The notes beneath the pieces were generated by a model that was not told the origin of the DNA, ran no database searches, and saw only the letters and a program-made list of their open reading frames with translations. DNA of 35,957 nt from Draconibacterium orientale (GTDB lineage: Bacteria > Bacteroidota > Bacteroidia > Bacteroidales > UBA12170). Of this stretch, positions 282 to 12,047 are shown piece after piece. Within the stretch, counting starts at the first letter, position 1. Each line of letters opens with the position of its first letter. The stretch lies in the NCBI GenBank assembly GCA_020718205.1, contig DYSN01000027.1, forward strand, positions 1-35,957, in the 5' to 3' direction. The position numbers were made by a program, and so were the translations under genes.

Positions 282-1667
282 CTACTTCCTCACCTTCTTA
301 ATAAACTCTTCCACCTCCGGTACGCCGCCCTGATACACCAAATAGCCATTATAGGGTTCGCGGCTTGTTATTTCGTCGTTGATGGGGGTGAGCATGAGTT
401 TCTTCACTTCTTCGGGGTCGTCGGTTTGTCCCAAAGCCCAGCCCAGCTTAATGAAGGCCACTTCGGGCAGCATGTTTCCGGCGGGAATAATTCCTTTGGC
501 CATCATATCGCGGCCTGTATCGTAAACAAACATGTGTACATATCCCCAAATGGTTTGCAAAGTCATGTACATATGAACGCCCTTTTTGTGGGCGCGTTCA
601 ATGGCCGGATACAGTTCCTTGTTCACGTGGCCAAGTCCGGTGCCAATAAATACAATTCCTTTATAACCGGCATCTACCATGGCATCTAAGATATCGGGCT
701 TCATGGCTGGATAATAATAAAGCATGGTCACCTTATCGCTGAAATAGGGAAGAATCTTCACATTTTTATCTCTCCGGCGGTGATTGAATTCCTTTTTAAT
801 GGGGGTAATGCTGCTTCGCGTAACCATAGCCATGGGCACATCGCCAATGGTTCTGAAAGTAGACCGGTAGCTCGAATGCATTTTTCTCACACGAGTTCCT
901 TTGTGCAGCAGCCCATACTCGTCGGAAGTGGGGCCAAACATACAAACCATCACTTCGGCTATGTCGCTGTGTCCGGCGGCATACATGGCATGCATCAGGT
1001 TTAAGGCTGCATCGGAGCTCGGACGGTCCGATGAGCGCTGAGAACCCACCAAAATAATGGGCACAGGCGAATTCTGAACCATAAACGTAAGCGCTGCTCC
1101 TGTATGATGCAAGGTATCGGTTCCATGGCCAATAACGATGCCGTCAACGCCGCGTTCTATTTCTCTTCCAATGGCTTTGGCCAGTGCCATATATTGGTTG
1201 GGGCCCATATTTTCGGAGAATACCGCAAAAATCTTTTCGGTTTCAAGGTTGCAGATGTCGGCAAGTTCTGGCACAGCGCCATAGAGCTCGCCCGGCGAAA
1301 AGGCCGGAATCACAGCTCCTGTTCTGTAGTCGAGACGGCTGGCAATGGTTCCCCCGGTTCCAAACAGCTTCACCTTGGGCAAGCCTTCGGTATAGGGAAA
1401 TTCTTTTTCCGGAATTTTATAATTGGCCTTTTTATATCCGGTTTCTTTCATATTGGTGATGGTATTGATGTCGACCCCAACATTGTAACCGGTGATAATC
1501 TTCATTACAATATGCTGATCGTCATCGTTTTCGGCTCTTGGTAAAACAGTGCCCTGGAACATTCCGCGGGTGGTTTCCACCTGAGCCTGTCCCCAAACTC
1601 TTACATGATATTTTTTCAGCATCTCCAGCGATGCTCCCTTATAACCTTGAAATATATCGTCGCTCAT
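282..1667 (-). CDS. gatD: Glu-tRNA(Gln) amidotransferase subunit D (archaeal-type, asparaginase-like)
   Basis: 461 aa with an N-terminal GatD-type domain followed by an asparaginase fold: FGTGGTIASRLDYRTGAV, GHGTDTLHHTGAAL, VGSQRSSDRPSSDAALNL. It directly follows gatE. Confidence 0.9.
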   Translation of the reverse strand: MSDDIFQGYKGASLEMLKKYHVRVWGQAQVETTRGMFQGTVLPRAENDDDQHIVMKIITGYNVGVDINTITNMKETGYKKANYKIPEKEFPYTEGLPKVKLFGTGGTIASRLDYRTGAVIPAFSPGELYGAVPELADICNLETEKIFAVFSENMGPNQYMALAKAIGREIERGVDGIVIGHGTDTLHHTGAALTFMVQNSPVPIILVGSQRSSDRPSSDAALNLMHAMYAAGHSDIAEVMVCMFGPTSDEYGLLHKGTRVRKMHSSYRSTFRTIGDVPMAMVTRSSITPIKKEFNHRRRDKNVKILPYFSDKVTMLYYYPAMKPDILDAMVDAGYKGIVFIGTGLGHVNKELYPAIERAHKKGVHMYMTLQTIWGYVHMFVYDTGRDMMAKGIIPAGNMLPEVAFIKLGWALGQTDDPEEVKKLMLTPINDEITSREPYNGYLVYQGGVPEVEEFIKKVRK

Positions 1668-1686
1668 TATTTTAATTGATTGAATG

Positions 1687-3657
1687 TTAAGAATTTATTT
1701 GGTCTACTTTTCCCTGAAGCTCGCTGAGCGAAATATTGCCCAATGCAAAACTTCTCATTTGGCCCATCACCCAGTTTTTCTCGTTTTTCTCGTTTTTGCA
1801 CTGAGCTATTTGAACAAATTTCTCCTTTAAAAAGGGAATCTGGCTGAGAATATTTTCCTTGGCTGTTTTGCGGAAATTAATGGCGTTCAGCACCGAATCG
1901 AACTGCATTTTCGGATGGGTGTAAATAACCGGGAGCATTTTTAGTGCCAACTCTTTTTCCAGCTGGTTGTCTTTCAAATACTTGAATAAACCAAAGATGA
2001 TGTGATAGTCGAAATGATCCACCGATTTATGATGACCTTCTACAAATTTCATATGATGGCCTAAAAATGTTCCGGCAAAGCGGGGCGAAAGGCCAAGCTC
2101 CAAATACAATCTTTCAATTAGCGGATAAAGATTTTTCTTGAAAAGATAGGTATAGGTATCTTCGGGAACATTCCAGGTTTTAAGCTGATGATACCGATCC
2201 ATAATATCACTGGGCAAATTGGCACTAAGTTGTTCTATATATTTGTTTTCCAATGGAATGGGTGCGGAATCGGTGTCGGGATACATGCGGTCGGCGCCGG
2301 GTAAAACCCTCTCGAAAATGGTGGTTCCGTTGGCAAACGATTTCCGGGTTTCCTTGGGAACTTCGCTAAAGGCCATCAGACAGCGTTCTTCAATGGTTTC
2401 CAGGGCGGTTTTAACATCGTCTTTGGGTCCCCAGAAAACAATCTGACCATCTTCTTTCCCCGATTGGAGCAGGGTTCTTATTTTTTCGAAATCGTCTTCG
2501 GCTATGGTGGGCTCCAGGCTTTCGCTGTGGGTCATATTGGGGAGTTCTAAGCAGGCTATTACTTTGAGTCGCTCGGAAATCTCGTCGGCAAAAACTTTTC
2601 CTGGCTGGGTAAAATGGGAGAGGAGCTTGCGGAATTGCGGAAGATTAACAGCCACTATGGTGAACCCCTGTTTTTTAGCCTGATTGATTTCTTTCGAAGG
2701 GAAACCAAACAGATAAAAATCGAGCTCAGCGGAGGTCATTTTCCAATCTTCTTTTTTAATTCGTTCGTTTAAATCGGTGCGAAGATGCAGCAAAGCCCAC
2801 TGTCTGAATGCTTCTATATGGGTGAGTTCCGGTATCCATTTGGTGTGCGAAACTCCTTTTATTTCTACCCTTGTTCCGCCTTTGCAACTCACGTTTACGT
2901 CTTCGCGTCCGGCGCCAATTCCTGTAACGACTTTGCCGGTGCTGCGGTTAAGGAAGCGGATATAATCGCAGGCTTCTTTCACTTCGTCGGGATTCAGCAG
3001 CTCGGGCTGTGTAACGGTTTCGATGAGAGGCATTCCCAGTCGGTCGGTTTTGTAGATTCTGGTATGGCCAATGTCCGAAATTTCGCGGCAACTATCTTCT
3101 TCAATGCTCAGTTGAATGAGTCCCACTTTCTTGTTTTTCAGGGGAATTTCGCCGTTGACGCCCAAAATAGCCGTTCTCTGAAATCCTGTGGGAATACTTC
3201 CATCTAAGTATTGTTTGCGGATAATATGCACTTCGCCCACGATATTCAGCTTCGACAGAAGCGAAATTTCGAGACCAATTCCCAGTGCTTCGCGGTTGAT
3301 GGGGAAGGGGGGAGTATCGTCCACTTCGTAGGTACAGGTGGTTTGGTTTTTGAGTCGGTAGATGATGGTTTTGCGGGTTTTAAACTCCATGAGCGCAGTG
3401 CCGTCGTACTCACCCAACTCGCTCAGCGTGGGCCGCATATGACGGATAACTTCGGCATCGAAATCGTTGTGTGTGTGATATTTACCCGCCGGGCAATGGC
3501 AGAAAAGTTTTTCTTTGGTAAGTAGTTGCTGGTGCACTTCGAGCCCCGACATAAATCCAATTCGGCTATAATCTTTCTGAGTGGCTTCCTTTCTGCTCAC
3601 ATAACCAATGGCCTTTTTGGTGGCTTCGTAATTTTTTTTCGGATCGAATTTTCTCAT
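1687..3657 (-). CDS. gatE: Glu-tRNA(Gln) amidotransferase subunit E (archaeal-type, GatB/E family with GAD-like insertion)
   Basis: 656 aa; GLEVHQQLLTKEKLFCHCPAG, RHMRPTLSELGEYDGTALMEF, YEVDDTPPFPIN, EDSCREI; insertion region and tail typical of GatE rather than GatB. Confidence 0.9.
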   Translation of the reverse strand: MRKFDPKKNYEATKKAIGYVSRKEATQKDYSRIGFMSGLEVHQQLLTKEKLFCHCPAGKYHTHNDFDAEVIRHMRPTLSELGEYDGTALMEFKTRKTIIYRLKNQTTCTYEVDDTPPFPINREALGIGLEISLLSKLNIVGEVHIIRKQYLDGSIPTGFQRTAILGVNGEIPLKNKKVGLIQLSIEEDSCREISDIGHTRIYKTDRLGMPLIETVTQPELLNPDEVKEACDYIRFLNRSTGKVVTGIGAGREDVNVSCKGGTRVEIKGVSHTKWIPELTHIEAFRQWALLHLRTDLNERIKKEDWKMTSAELDFYLFGFPSKEINQAKKQGFTIVAVNLPQFRKLLSHFTQPGKVFADEISERLKVIACLELPNMTHSESLEPTIAEDDFEKIRTLLQSGKEDGQIVFWGPKDDVKTALETIEERCLMAFSEVPKETRKSFANGTTIFERVLPGADRMYPDTDSAPIPLENKYIEQLSANLPSDIMDRYHQLKTWNVPEDTYTYLFKKNLYPLIERLYLELGLSPRFAGTFLGHHMKFVEGHHKSVDHFDYHIIFGLFKYLKDNQLEKELALKMLPVIYTHPKMQFDSVLNAINFRKTAKENILSQIPFLKEKFVQIAQCKNEKNEKNWVMGQMRSFALGNISLSELQGKVDQINS

Positions 3658-3728
3658 GTTCTGAAATGTTTTTTTTGAAGATGGAAAAGGATCTGGATAG
3701 ATTGTTCTTCCTTGCCCATATTGGGTTT

Positions 3729-3736
3729 CAAAGGTA
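3729..3736 (-). promoter_or_regulatory. Predicted Bacteroidota -7 element (TACCTTTG) for gatE-gatD
   Basis: caaaggta on the + strand, i.e. TACCTTTG on -, about 70 nt upstream of the gatE start. Confidence 0.5.
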
Positions 3737-4050
3737 ACTAAACTGCCGTTAAGTCGATTGATTTGATTCTAAAACTATAAGCCCGTTTCGCCTTTTCAGG
3801 GAATTACTTAATTTTTGAATTTTATGTCTTTTTGGGGGCTGAAAATTATAGGTGAACGCTTTTTTTGGTGGCGAAATAAAACTATCAATTCGGTATGACA
3901 AGTTTGGGAAAAAAGTTGGGGATGGTTTTTCAACTATTTGTGAATAAGAGACATAAGCTTTGTTTATGAATCTGCTAAACAAGGATAATTTGTTTTCAAT
4001 CAGGTTAAATCGGATCATTCAGGAGCGAGAAACAAGAACCTCAATCTCTT

Positions 4051-4977
4051 CTATCGAATCATGCCAATCAAAGCTTCCAGCGATTTGAAAACAGTTGTTT
4101 TTTTCAAATTGTGACCTGGTTGCAGCAGGGTGGCTCGCTGTCCTGCAGCCCAAAATTCATCGTTGCGATTGTTTAGCAGCTCATTTTCAAATTGATGGAA
4201 ATAGGCATCCACCTGATCCATATCGGGCTTTATGGTGAAATAGCTGATGAATTTTATCTTATTAAACGATTTCTGCAAGGCATATAAATTGTCTATGGGC
4301 ACGCTTTGACCCAGGTAAACGCTGTAATATCCCTTTAAAAGAAGTTCGTAGTGAATGAAAAGTAAGGCAAACTCGTGAATTTCGTTGTCGGGAAGAAAAA
4401 GCACATAAACTTCTTCGGGGTTCCGGGGCAGCACTTCCTGAACCCGCTCAATGTTTATTAAAAGCTTTTGCTTTAGAAGATTGGAGAAAAAGTGCTCGTG
4501 TGCCGGCGTCAGACTGTTCGATTGCCACTCAATGCCAATATTGTGTAAAAAGGGAATCAGGACGTGAACAAAAACCTCGCGAAAGGATGATTCGCTGATA
4601 AGGCTGTTATAGGTATGCTCAAAAAGATTGCGGTCGAAATTGAGCATGGAAATCTTCAGGGAATTAACGAAGTGTTCGTGCTCATTTCGTCCACTGGTGA
4701 GCTCACGCACTTTATTTTCGAGCTCGGAGCTTTTAAAAGTGGCTATTTTAGAGATTTTTATCCCCTGATGATTTAAAATGGCAATATTGAGGAGTTTTTT
4801 TAAGTTTTCCAGATCGTAGTAGCGTATGTTCGACTCGGTTCTGTTTGGTACCAAAAGCCCGTATCGTTTCTCCCAGATTCTTATTGTGTGCGCCTTAATT
4901 CCGGTTAGATTTTCCAAATCTTTAATGGAAAAAAGAGATTGTATATTGTCCATAAAAATATTAAAAAAATTAAACAA
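4051..4977 (-). CDS. MerR-family transcriptional regulator with C-terminal cobalamin-binding-like domain (CarH/LitR-like)
   Basis: N-terminal MerR helix-turn-helix (LTGIKAHTIRIWEKRYGLLVPNRTESNIRYYDLENLKKL). C-terminal domain has a W-x9-EH motif (WQSNSLTPAHEH) and an E-x-H segment (DNEIHEFA) at the usual B12-His position. Confidence 0.8.
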   Translation of the reverse strand: MFNFFNIFMDNIQSLFSIKDLENLTGIKAHTIRIWEKRYGLLVPNRTESNIRYYDLENLKKLLNIAILNHQGIKISKIATFKSSELENKVRELTSGRNEHEHFVNSLKISMLNFDRNLFEHTYNSLISESSFREVFVHVLIPFLHNIGIEWQSNSLTPAHEHFFSNLLKQKLLINIERVQEVLPRNPEEVYVLFLPDNEIHEFALLFIHYELLLKGYYSVYLGQSVPIDNLYALQKSFNKIKFISYFTIKPDMDQVDAYFHQFENELLNNRNDEFWAAGQRATLLQPGHNLKKTTVFKSLEALIGMIR

Positions 4978-10754: not shown

Positions 10755-12047
10755 TTATAAATAGCCCCAGGCCCAAAGTTTATCGGAATCTTCTGTCCAA
10801 CGGTCGCCAATATCGGTTCTATAATAAACATTGTTAATCAATATATTACCAATACGATTATACATTTGTCGCTGAGCTTCCTTCATGGTGAGGCCCGTTC
10901 CGCTGATGAGCAAAGCAATTCCAAAGTCGGCTGTAATGAGCCATTCCCCATTAATTTTCTTTAAATGTTGCGGGTGCACACCCTCTTTCATGGGTTTTTT
11001 AATCACCACCACCGCATCTTTCGAAAACATTTCGAAGGTTTTTTTGTCGTCGTAAGGAAAAGGTGGCACTACCATATAAGCACCCACTTGAAACCCTCTT
11101 TTAACCTGAATGGTAAATTGTTTGCCTGTGGCTATTTTAAAAAGCATTTCGCCAAAGGGTTCTGTAATTCCTGCCCTTTGAATAAAAACCTGGGGATAGC
11201 CAAAACGCGAAGTAAACTCCAAAGGATAAATACCATTTCCATTCACTATGCAGTTAATGTCCAGATGGCCGGTAAAGTGGTGAAGTTTGAATATAGTTTC
11301 AAATTTCTTTAAGGTTGCATCGAACAGGGGGCTTTGGTCGGTCCAAAACATCGAGGAACCCATTTCTCCGGTGGAAACGCCCAATTCCTTGGGGAATAGT
11401 TTTTTATGCTCGAAAGTAATGTTGTAGGGTTTAAGAAACTGTTCGCCATTAAAAAAGCCTGAAACAGAAACTTCGACACCCGTTACACGTCGTTGCAACT
11501 GAAAAACTTCTAAGGTTTTTCCCCAGGTTTTTTCGTAGGCTTTCAACACCCGGATTATGTCGCTTCCATCTTCTTCCTTGCCCACAAAGAGCAGCTGTTT
11601 ATAATCCTGCATTTCGCCGGAAGGCTTCAGAACATAGGCATTTGGGTTTTTCTGAACATAGGAAATAGCATCGCTGTAGGAGTGAAATTCCATGTAGGAA
11701 AGGATTTTTATCTTATGATTTTTCAATTCCTTTTGACCAAAGCTACGGTCAACCTCCAATAAATCGGTATATTCAGTACCGCCAATGACCGGTTTTCCGG
11801 ATTTTCTGAGTTCAGAAGCTTCTTTTCCCCAGCCGGTATAGTCGAAGACAACAATATCGGCCCAGTTTAGGTGCTTTTTCCAGTCGCGGGCTTTTGGAAC
11901 AAACCCTACGCCAATCTCGCGATAGGAAGGAGTTTCCGTATACATCTTCACATCGTTACCTTCGTTAAGTACAGCAAAGGCGATATCAAGAATTTCACCC
12001 CATTTGGAGACAAAAAGAAATTTCAGTTTTGAGTTAGTTTTTTCCAT
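10755..12047 (-). CDS. PurD (GARS)-like ATP-grasp protein of uncertain substrate
   Basis: 430 aa; GVEVSVSGFFNGEQF, GEMGSSMFW, FTGHLDINCIVNGNGIYPLEFTSRFGYPQ resemble the GARS ATP-grasp region. The N-terminus lacks the canonical PurD GGREHA motif. Confidence 0.7.
   Translation of the reverse strand: MEKTNSKLKFLFVSKWGEILDIAFAVLNEGNDVKMYTETPSYREIGVGFVPKARDWKKHLNWADIVVFDYTGWGKEASELRKSGKPVIGGTEYTDLLEVDRSFGQKELKNHKIKILSYMEFHSYSDAISYVQKNPNAYVLKPSGEMQDYKQLLFVGKEEDGSDIIRVLKAYEKTWGKTLEVFQLQRRVTGVEVSVSGFFNGEQFLKPYNITFEHKKLFPKELGVSTGEMGSSMFWTDQSPLFDATLKKFETIFKLHHFTGHLDINCIVNGNGIYPLEFTSRFGYPQVFIQRAGITEPFGEMLFKIATGKQFTIQVKRGFQVGAYMVVPPFPYDDKKTFEMFSKDAVVVIKKPMKEGVHPQHLKKINGEWLITADFGIALLISGTGLTMKEAQRQMYNRIGNILINNVYYRTDIGDRWTEDSDKLWAWGYL

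What the first reader, a model, noticed from the sequence alone, without database searches (positions are those of the whole stretch)
282..3657. Archaeal-type GatD-GatE amidotransferase pair in a Bacteroidota genome
Both subunits of the GatDE Glu-tRNA(Gln) amidotransferase sit side by side (GatE then GatD, 19-nt gap, one predicted promoter) and look full length with family motifs intact. GatDE is the archaeal route to Gln-tRNA(Gln); bacteria usually use GlnRS or GatCAB, and typical Bacteroidota use GlnRS. A complete, apparently functional pair among normal bacterial housekeeping genes suggests inter-domain transfer. It could replace, or duplicate, the standard Gln-tRNA pathway, or have been adapted to another amidation substrate.
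Basis: partly seen in the sequence, partly recalled or inferred. Interest (0 to 1): 0.72.

Follow-up and report, generated by a model that had tools for sequence, protein, structure and literature searches.

The report
Archaeal-type GatDE in Bacteroidales beside GlnRS
A pair of genes that makes glutaminyl-tRNA in archaea, and that reviews still call exclusive to archaea, turns out to be an old, intact and vertically inherited gene pair in about two fifths of the Bacteroidales genomes sampled, which also keep the ordinary bacterial enzyme for the same job, so its role there is an open and testable question.

Summary
gatE (1687-3657, minus) and gatD (282-1667, minus) are intact, 19 nt apart, pass curated GatE/GatD cut-offs, and keep every catalytic residue checked. 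The predicted GatE fold is closest to archaeal GatE crystal structures.

This is not an odd transfer into one genome: GatE is in 126 of 295 sampled genomes of the order (NCBI-named relatives are almost all "Bacteroidales bacterium"), 10 of 11 in the genus, and its tree follows GTDB families (33 label changes; minimum 32, shuffled 69). A second clade sits in other classes of the phylum. It has not replaced GlnRS: GlnRS is found in 114 of 126 GatE+ genomes. Genomes lacking GlnRS are enriched for GatCAB, not GatDE. GluRS looks discriminating in all 52 enzymes checked, and tRNA-Gln does not differ visibly with GatE.

Best reading: an active Glu-tRNA(Gln) amidotransferase under strong purifying selection, working beside GlnRS as a second or corrective route. 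A new substrate is the main rival. Reviews say GatDE is archaea-only; I found no paper reporting it in bacteria in the open-access library. Donor and direction of transfer could not be tested: only three archaeal sequences were reachable.

The parts
1687..3657 (-). gatE: Glu-tRNA(Gln) amidotransferase subunit E, 656 aa, kinase/transamidase subunit with tRNA-binding insertion and tail regions
   Evidence: NCBIfam NF003107 and TIGR00134 over cut-off; GatB_N Pfam; best PDB relatives 1zq1_C and 2d6f_C; AF2 model pLDDT 88.5, Foldseek best hits 1zq1_C, 2d6f_D, 2d6f_C; E40, H42, E186, E213 invariant
282..1667 (-). gatD: Glu-tRNA(Gln) amidotransferase subunit D, 461 aa, asparaginase-like ammonia-releasing subunit
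   Evidence: TIGR02153 490 bits, cut-off 324; GatD_N + Asparaginase + Asparaginase_C Pfam domains; T107, T183, D184, K262 = M. thermautotrophicus T101, T177, D178, K254, invariant
1668..1686 (-). 19-nt intergenic gap; gatE-gatD two-gene unit, same strand
   Evidence: coordinates; same-strand pairing in 106 of 106 loci where both genes were read
3658..4050 (-). region upstream of gatE, probable location of the promoter; the sigma-70-like match at 3874-3845 is no better than chance
   Evidence: 7 sites found, 7.7 expected

Best explanation
The window encodes a genuine, active GatDE. GatD hydrolyses an amide donor and passes ammonia to GatE, which phosphorylates and amidates the glutamate of Glu-tRNA(Gln), giving Gln-tRNA(Gln). 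The pair is an old resident of Bacteroidales, inherited vertically and frequently absent, and works beside GlnRS rather than instead of it: most likely it converts the Glu-tRNA(Gln) that GluRS makes by mistake (or under some condition) into Gln-tRNA(Gln), as a corrective or backup route. Shown: intact genes, family membership, conserved catalytic residues, purifying selection, spread and vertical inheritance, coexistence with GlnRS and with a GluRS of discriminating type. Inferred: the enzymatic activity, the tRNA substrate, the corrective role, and an ultimately archaeal origin.
For: Curated GatD/GatE models passed; closest solved structures are archaeal GatDE by sequence and by fold. 73 GatE and 97 GatD positions are invariant across archaea and both bacterial clades, including the GatD Thr-Thr-Asp-Lys set and GatE E40/H42/E186/E213. 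dN/dS about 0.04 (GatE) and 0.003-0.02 (GatD) in close pairs. The two genes are on the same strand in 106/106 loci while their neighbours differ; in one genome glnS lies directly upstream of gatE-gatD. GatE in 10/11 genomes of the genus and 126/295 of the order, tree congruent with families. The tRNA-Gln genes in the bin have U1-A72 and a short D-loop, and tRNA-Glu has G1 and, by my reading, an extra D-loop base at 20a; U1-A72 and U20a are the amidotransferase determinant and antideterminant described for GatCAB-type enzymes (PMC9976931).
Against: No GatE+ genome type was found that clearly depends on GatDE: GlnRS absence is the same in GatE+ and GatE- genomes (12/126 and 12/169, p=0.52), and GluRS keeps the Thermus Arg358 equivalent in 28/28 GatE+ and 24/24 GatE- genomes, so little Glu-tRNA(Gln) is expected. 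tRNA-Gln does not differ visibly with GatDE presence. The tRNA-reading tail of GatE (about 501-656) has diverged strongly from archaea, which would fit a changed substrate as well as adaptation to bacterial tRNA.
Confidence: 0.6

Rival explanations
1. GatDE keeps its chemistry but has a new substrate (another misacylated tRNA, or a non-tRNA carboxylate), so its tail evolved away from tRNA-Gln recognition.
For: GlnRS present and GluRS of discriminating type leave little need for it; the tail is the most diverged region between archaea, clade A and clade B; GatDE does not compensate for loss of GlnRS, whereas GatCAB seems to.
Against: Residues outside the tail, including the catalytic core, are strongly kept; 54 of 73 relatives still match the GAD and YqeY-tail Pfam domains; glnS is next to gatE in one genome; AsnRS is present, so an Asn role is not needed.
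Confidence: 0.25
2. GatDE replaces GlnRS as the route to Gln-tRNA(Gln) in these bacteria.
For: Family function in archaea; a minority of GatE+ genomes lack a GlnRS hit, e.g. G469 and G429 at 99% and 96% completeness.
Against: GlnRS found in 114/126 GatE+ genomes of the order and 26/29 GatE+ genomes of other classes. Lack of both GlnRS and GatB in GatE+ genomes (9/126) equals the rate at which the indispensable GluRS is missed (8/126, p=1.0), i.e. genome incompleteness.
Confidence: 0.04
3. Artefact: an archaeal contig mis-binned into a Bacteroidales genome.
For: The bin is mixed (6.2% contamination, two GlnRS, two GluRS, 4.1 Mb; the genus mates in the order-wide sample have 2.9-3.1 Mb).
Against: The window carries bacterial genes throughout (F1Fo ATP synthase, dnaX, gyrB-like, cysS); independent relatives have 76-79% GatE and 90% GatD identity; 10/11 genomes of the genus carry GatE.
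Confidence: 0.01
4. A decaying relic of an old transfer with no present function.
For: Patchy presence (43% of the order) and changing gene neighbourhood even inside the genus.
Against: Full-length in nearly all loci read, strong purifying selection, invariant catalytic residues, constant pairing.
Confidence: 0.05

Closest known systems
Archaeal GatDE Glu-tRNA(Gln) amidotransferase (M. thermautotrophicus 2d6f, P. abyssi 1zq1)
   Same: Same two subunits, domain set for GatD, catalytic residues, overall GatE fold.
   Different: Host is a bacterium that has GlnRS and a discriminating-type GluRS; GatE tail strongly diverged; host tRNA-Gln starts U1-A72 where archaeal tRNA-Gln has A1-U72 (PMC9499178).
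Bacterial GatCAB amidotransferase
   Same: Same reaction type; GatE and GatB share the catalytic domain.
   Different: GatB models fall far below cut-off; fold match to GatB is weaker (TM by target 0.57-0.73 against 0.78-0.80); GatB is absent from the bin and rare in the order (14/295).
GatCAB coexisting with GlnRS and AsnRS (Bdellovibrio, Deinococcus, Thermus; PMC4206432 abstract)
   Same: A tRNA amidotransferase kept in bacteria that have the direct synthetases.
   Different: There the extra enzyme is GatCAB; here it is GatDE, with AsnRS present and no sign of a non-discriminating GluRS.
Bacterial type I L-asparaginase
   Same: GatD's catalytic domain belongs to this superfamily (TIGR00519 passed).
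   Different: GatD_N domain present, GatD equivalog model scores higher, and gatE lies on the same strand near it in every locus read.

Membership tests
GatDE | GatD equivalog model passed | tested here: met
   TIGR02153 490.4 bits, cut-off 324
GatDE | GatE equivalog model passed | tested here: met
   NF003107 457.7 (cut-off 456) and TIGR00134 387.5 (cut-off 319.55)
GatDE | GatD amidase residues (Mth T101, T177, D178, K254) | tested here: met
   T107, T183, D184, K262, invariant (97% or more in each bacterial clade) over 103 bacterial and 2 archaeal GatD; the role of these residues is from my own knowledge
GatDE | GatE kinase-site residues (Mth E13, H15, E157, E184) | tested here: met
   E40, H42, E186, E213 invariant; the role of these residues is from my own knowledge
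GatDE | AspRS-like (GAD) insertion and YqeY tail in GatE | tested here: inconclusive
   Not detected by Pfam in the window protein, but in 54 of 73 relatives each; an insertion and a helical tail are present in the model
GatDE | Fold of archaeal GatE rather than GatB | tested here: met
   Best Foldseek hits 1zq1_C, 2d6f_D, 2d6f_C, E 1e-39 to 1e-44; GatB from 5e-22
GatDE | gatD and gatE both present | tested here: met
   Adjacent in the window; same strand in 106/106 loci
GatDE | Amidates Glu-tRNA(Gln) | not testable with these tools
   Needs biochemistry
Archaeal GatDE pathway (indirect Gln-tRNA route) | No GlnRS in the genome | tested here: not met
   GlnRS in the bin and in 114/126 GatE+ genomes of the order
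Archaeal GatDE pathway (indirect Gln-tRNA route) | Non-discriminating GluRS | tested here: not met
   Arg358 equivalent in 28/28 GatE+ GluRS; a one-residue marker, not a proof
Archaeal GatDE pathway (indirect Gln-tRNA route) | tRNA-Gln with A1-U72 | tested here: not met
   U1-A72 in the tRNA-Gln genes of the bin; A73, the archaeal discriminator, is present but also in most tRNA-Gln of GatE- genomes
GatCAB | GatB model passed | tested here: not met
   Best GatB model 107 bits against cut-off 338

The most novel reading that the evidence does not exclude
Bacterial GatDE is not a supply route for Gln-tRNA(Gln) but a fidelity enzyme, or an amidotransferase with a new substrate, that evolved in Bacteroidota after an ancient acquisition; its diverged tail is the adapted recognition part.
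Probability: 0.4. Interest if true: 0.8.

Novelty: new variant of a known kind. Interest (0 to 1): 0.6.

Why it matters
Reviews state that GatDE exists exclusively in archaea, call it an archaeal signature, and explain the absence of GlnRS from archaea by coevolution of GatDE with archaeal tRNA-Gln (PMC8762117, PMC9499178). Here GatDE and GlnRS live together in the same cells across a large bacterial order, and in a second lineage of the phylum. That breaks the archaea-only statement, complicates evolutionary arguments built on it, and gives a natural setting in which to ask why a cell keeps both routes. Automatic annotation probably already names these genes; what appears unreported is their spread, their vertical inheritance and their coexistence with GlnRS.

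Tried and rejected
Plasmids: one haloarchaeal gatE-like stretch (Natrinema) and GatB-level hits only. Literature searches for bacterial GatDE: none found among the 28 papers listed for the term; Sheppard and Soll 2008 itself is not held. GluRS columns separating GatE+ from GatE- genomes: none. tRNA-Gln differences: none visible. A conserved third gene: only a NUDIX-domain gene in 20 of 62 loci, mostly one syntenic group. Rejected: contamination, plain asparaginase, GatB, replacement of GlnRS, relic.

Full report
OBSERVATION. The window holds gatE (1687-3657, minus, 656 aa) and gatD (282-1667, minus, 461 aa), 19 nt apart. GatD passes TIGR02153 (490 bits, cut-off 324) and has the GatD_N, Asparaginase and Asparaginase_C domains; GatE passes NF003107 (457.7 against 456, narrowly) and TIGR00134 (387 against 319.55), while bacterial GatB models stay far below cut-off. 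The nearest solved relatives are the archaeal GatDE structures 2d6f and 1zq1. An AlphaFold2 model of GatE (mean pLDDT 88.5, 73-sequence alignment) finds 1zq1_C and 2d6f_D/C first (E 1e-39 to 1e-44) and GatB from 5e-22. The promoter claim is not supported: 7 consensus-like sites against 7.7 in shuffles.

IS IT REALLY BACTERIAL. The genome bin is mixed: 4.12 Mb, 6.2% contamination, two GlnRS (70.5% identical) and two GluRS. The window contig nevertheless belongs to the named lineage: it is full of bacterial genes (F1Fo ATP synthase, dnaX, gyrB-like, cysS, purC), and 10 of 11 genomes of the genus carry GatE, the exception being 75% complete. Named relatives are almost all 'Bacteroidales bacterium' or 'Bacteroidetes bacterium' MAGs, the closest with 76-79% GatE and 90% GatD identity.

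SPREAD AND INHERITANCE. In 295 genomes drawn from the order, GatE is found in 126 (43%). In a phylum-wide sample of 396, 30 pass the cut-off: the window's genome and 29 from other classes. A tree of 78 GatE proteins from 33 GTDB families needs 33 label changes, where 32 is the minimum and shuffles average 69; the genus is one branch (support 99). The pair has therefore mainly been inherited vertically within the order. With three archaeal sequences as outgroup, the order's GatE (clade A) forms one branch and 24 of 25 sequences of the other classes (clade B) another; L031 sits apart on a long branch and its position is unsafe. Donor and direction of transfer cannot be judged from this.

FUNCTIONAL STATE. 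GatD residues T107, T183, D184, K262 and GatE residues E40, H42, E186, E213 are invariant across archaea and both bacterial clades, among 97 GatD and 73 GatE invariant positions. In the closest pairs dN/dS is about 0.04 for GatE and 0.003-0.02 for GatD. gatE and gatD lie on the same strand in 106 of 106 loci, while surrounding genes change even within the genus. In one genome glnS is immediately upstream. The C-terminal tail of GatE is the most diverged part; in GatDE the tail distinguishes tRNA-Gln from tRNA-Glu partly by D-loop shape (PMC4810234).

PATHWAY CONTEXT. GlnRS occurs in 271 of 295 genomes and in 114 of 126 GatE+ genomes (genomes without a match beyond the 20 printed were worked out from the handles missing in the list). 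Lack of GlnRS is not associated with GatE (12/126 against 12/169, p=0.52). Lack of both GlnRS and GatB in GatE+ genomes (9/126) matches the rate at which GluRS is missed (8/126), that is, genome incompleteness. In contrast GatB is enriched in GlnRS-lacking genomes (7/24 against 7/271, p=2e-5; few families, so not phylogenetically independent). So GatCAB, not GatDE, appears to stand in when GlnRS is lost. Of the 29 GatE+ genomes of other classes, 26 also have GlnRS. GluRS carries the equivalent of Thermus Arg358, a marker of discriminating enzymes (own knowledge), in 28/28 GatE+ and 24/24 GatE- genomes (position mapped). tRNA-Gln has U1-A72 and mostly A73 with or without GatE. AsnRS is present in the bin.

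MECHANISM. [quoted passage not shown] Steps shown: intact enzyme parts, selection, spread, coexistence with GlnRS. Steps inferred: activity, substrate, corrective role. The chief rival is a new substrate, which the diverged tail and the apparent lack of need would also fit.

WHAT IS KNOWN. [quoted passage not shown] PMC9499178; PMC7373986, describes it as the archaeal enzyme). None of the 28 papers listed for the term was seen to report it in bacteria, judged from titles, abstract starts and the passages read; subscription journals are mostly not covered.

VERDICT. Real, intact, ancient within the order; not an isolated transfer and not a GlnRS replacement. New variant of a known kind, interest 0.6.

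Noticed in passing
G000 (whole bin); L001/L002 and L003/L004: The window's genome bin is a mixture: two GlnRS and two GluRS. L003 GluRS is 69-72% identical to genus mates, L004 only 54-57%. Gene counts from this bin should be used with care.
   Followed up: partly
order-wide sample: GlnRS-lacking genomes of the order are enriched for GatB (7/24 against 7/271), suggesting replacement of GlnRS by GatCAB in a few families.
   Followed up: partly
L206-L235, tRNA-Gln genes: tRNA-Gln in this order mostly has discriminator A73, whereas PMC9499178 states G73 for bacterial and A73 for archaeal tRNA-Gln.
   Followed up: partly
L157, L158, L132, L162: Clade A GatDE in MAGs titled Candidatus Zixiibacteriota (two, sister to all others of the clade) and Candidatus Edwardsbacteria (grouping with an unnamed MAG): spread to other phyla or misnamed bins.
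   Followed up: no
L033 (G156): An order-type (clade A) gatE-gatD pair in a genome of another class of the phylum, whose family otherwise has clade B: later transfer or mis-binning.
   Followed up: no
L138, L142-L145, L147-L149, L151, L153, L155, L160: GatD of rumen and gut Bacteroidales is 485-491 aa, about 25-30 residues longer than the usual 461.
   Followed up: no
L165 4001-5900 (CP031304.1 about 706.1-708.0 kb): An unannotated gatE-like stretch on a Natrinema megaplasmid reads in two frames, so it looks frameshifted.
   Followed up: no
window 10755-12047: A PurD-like protein far below the purD cut-off (94 against 288 bits): a diverged ATP-grasp enzyme of unclear function between cysS and the ATP synthase genes.
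   Followed up: no
window 4051-4977: A MerR-type regulator with a B12-binding-domain match (CarH-like but far below the CarH cut-off) upstream of gatE.
   Followed up: no
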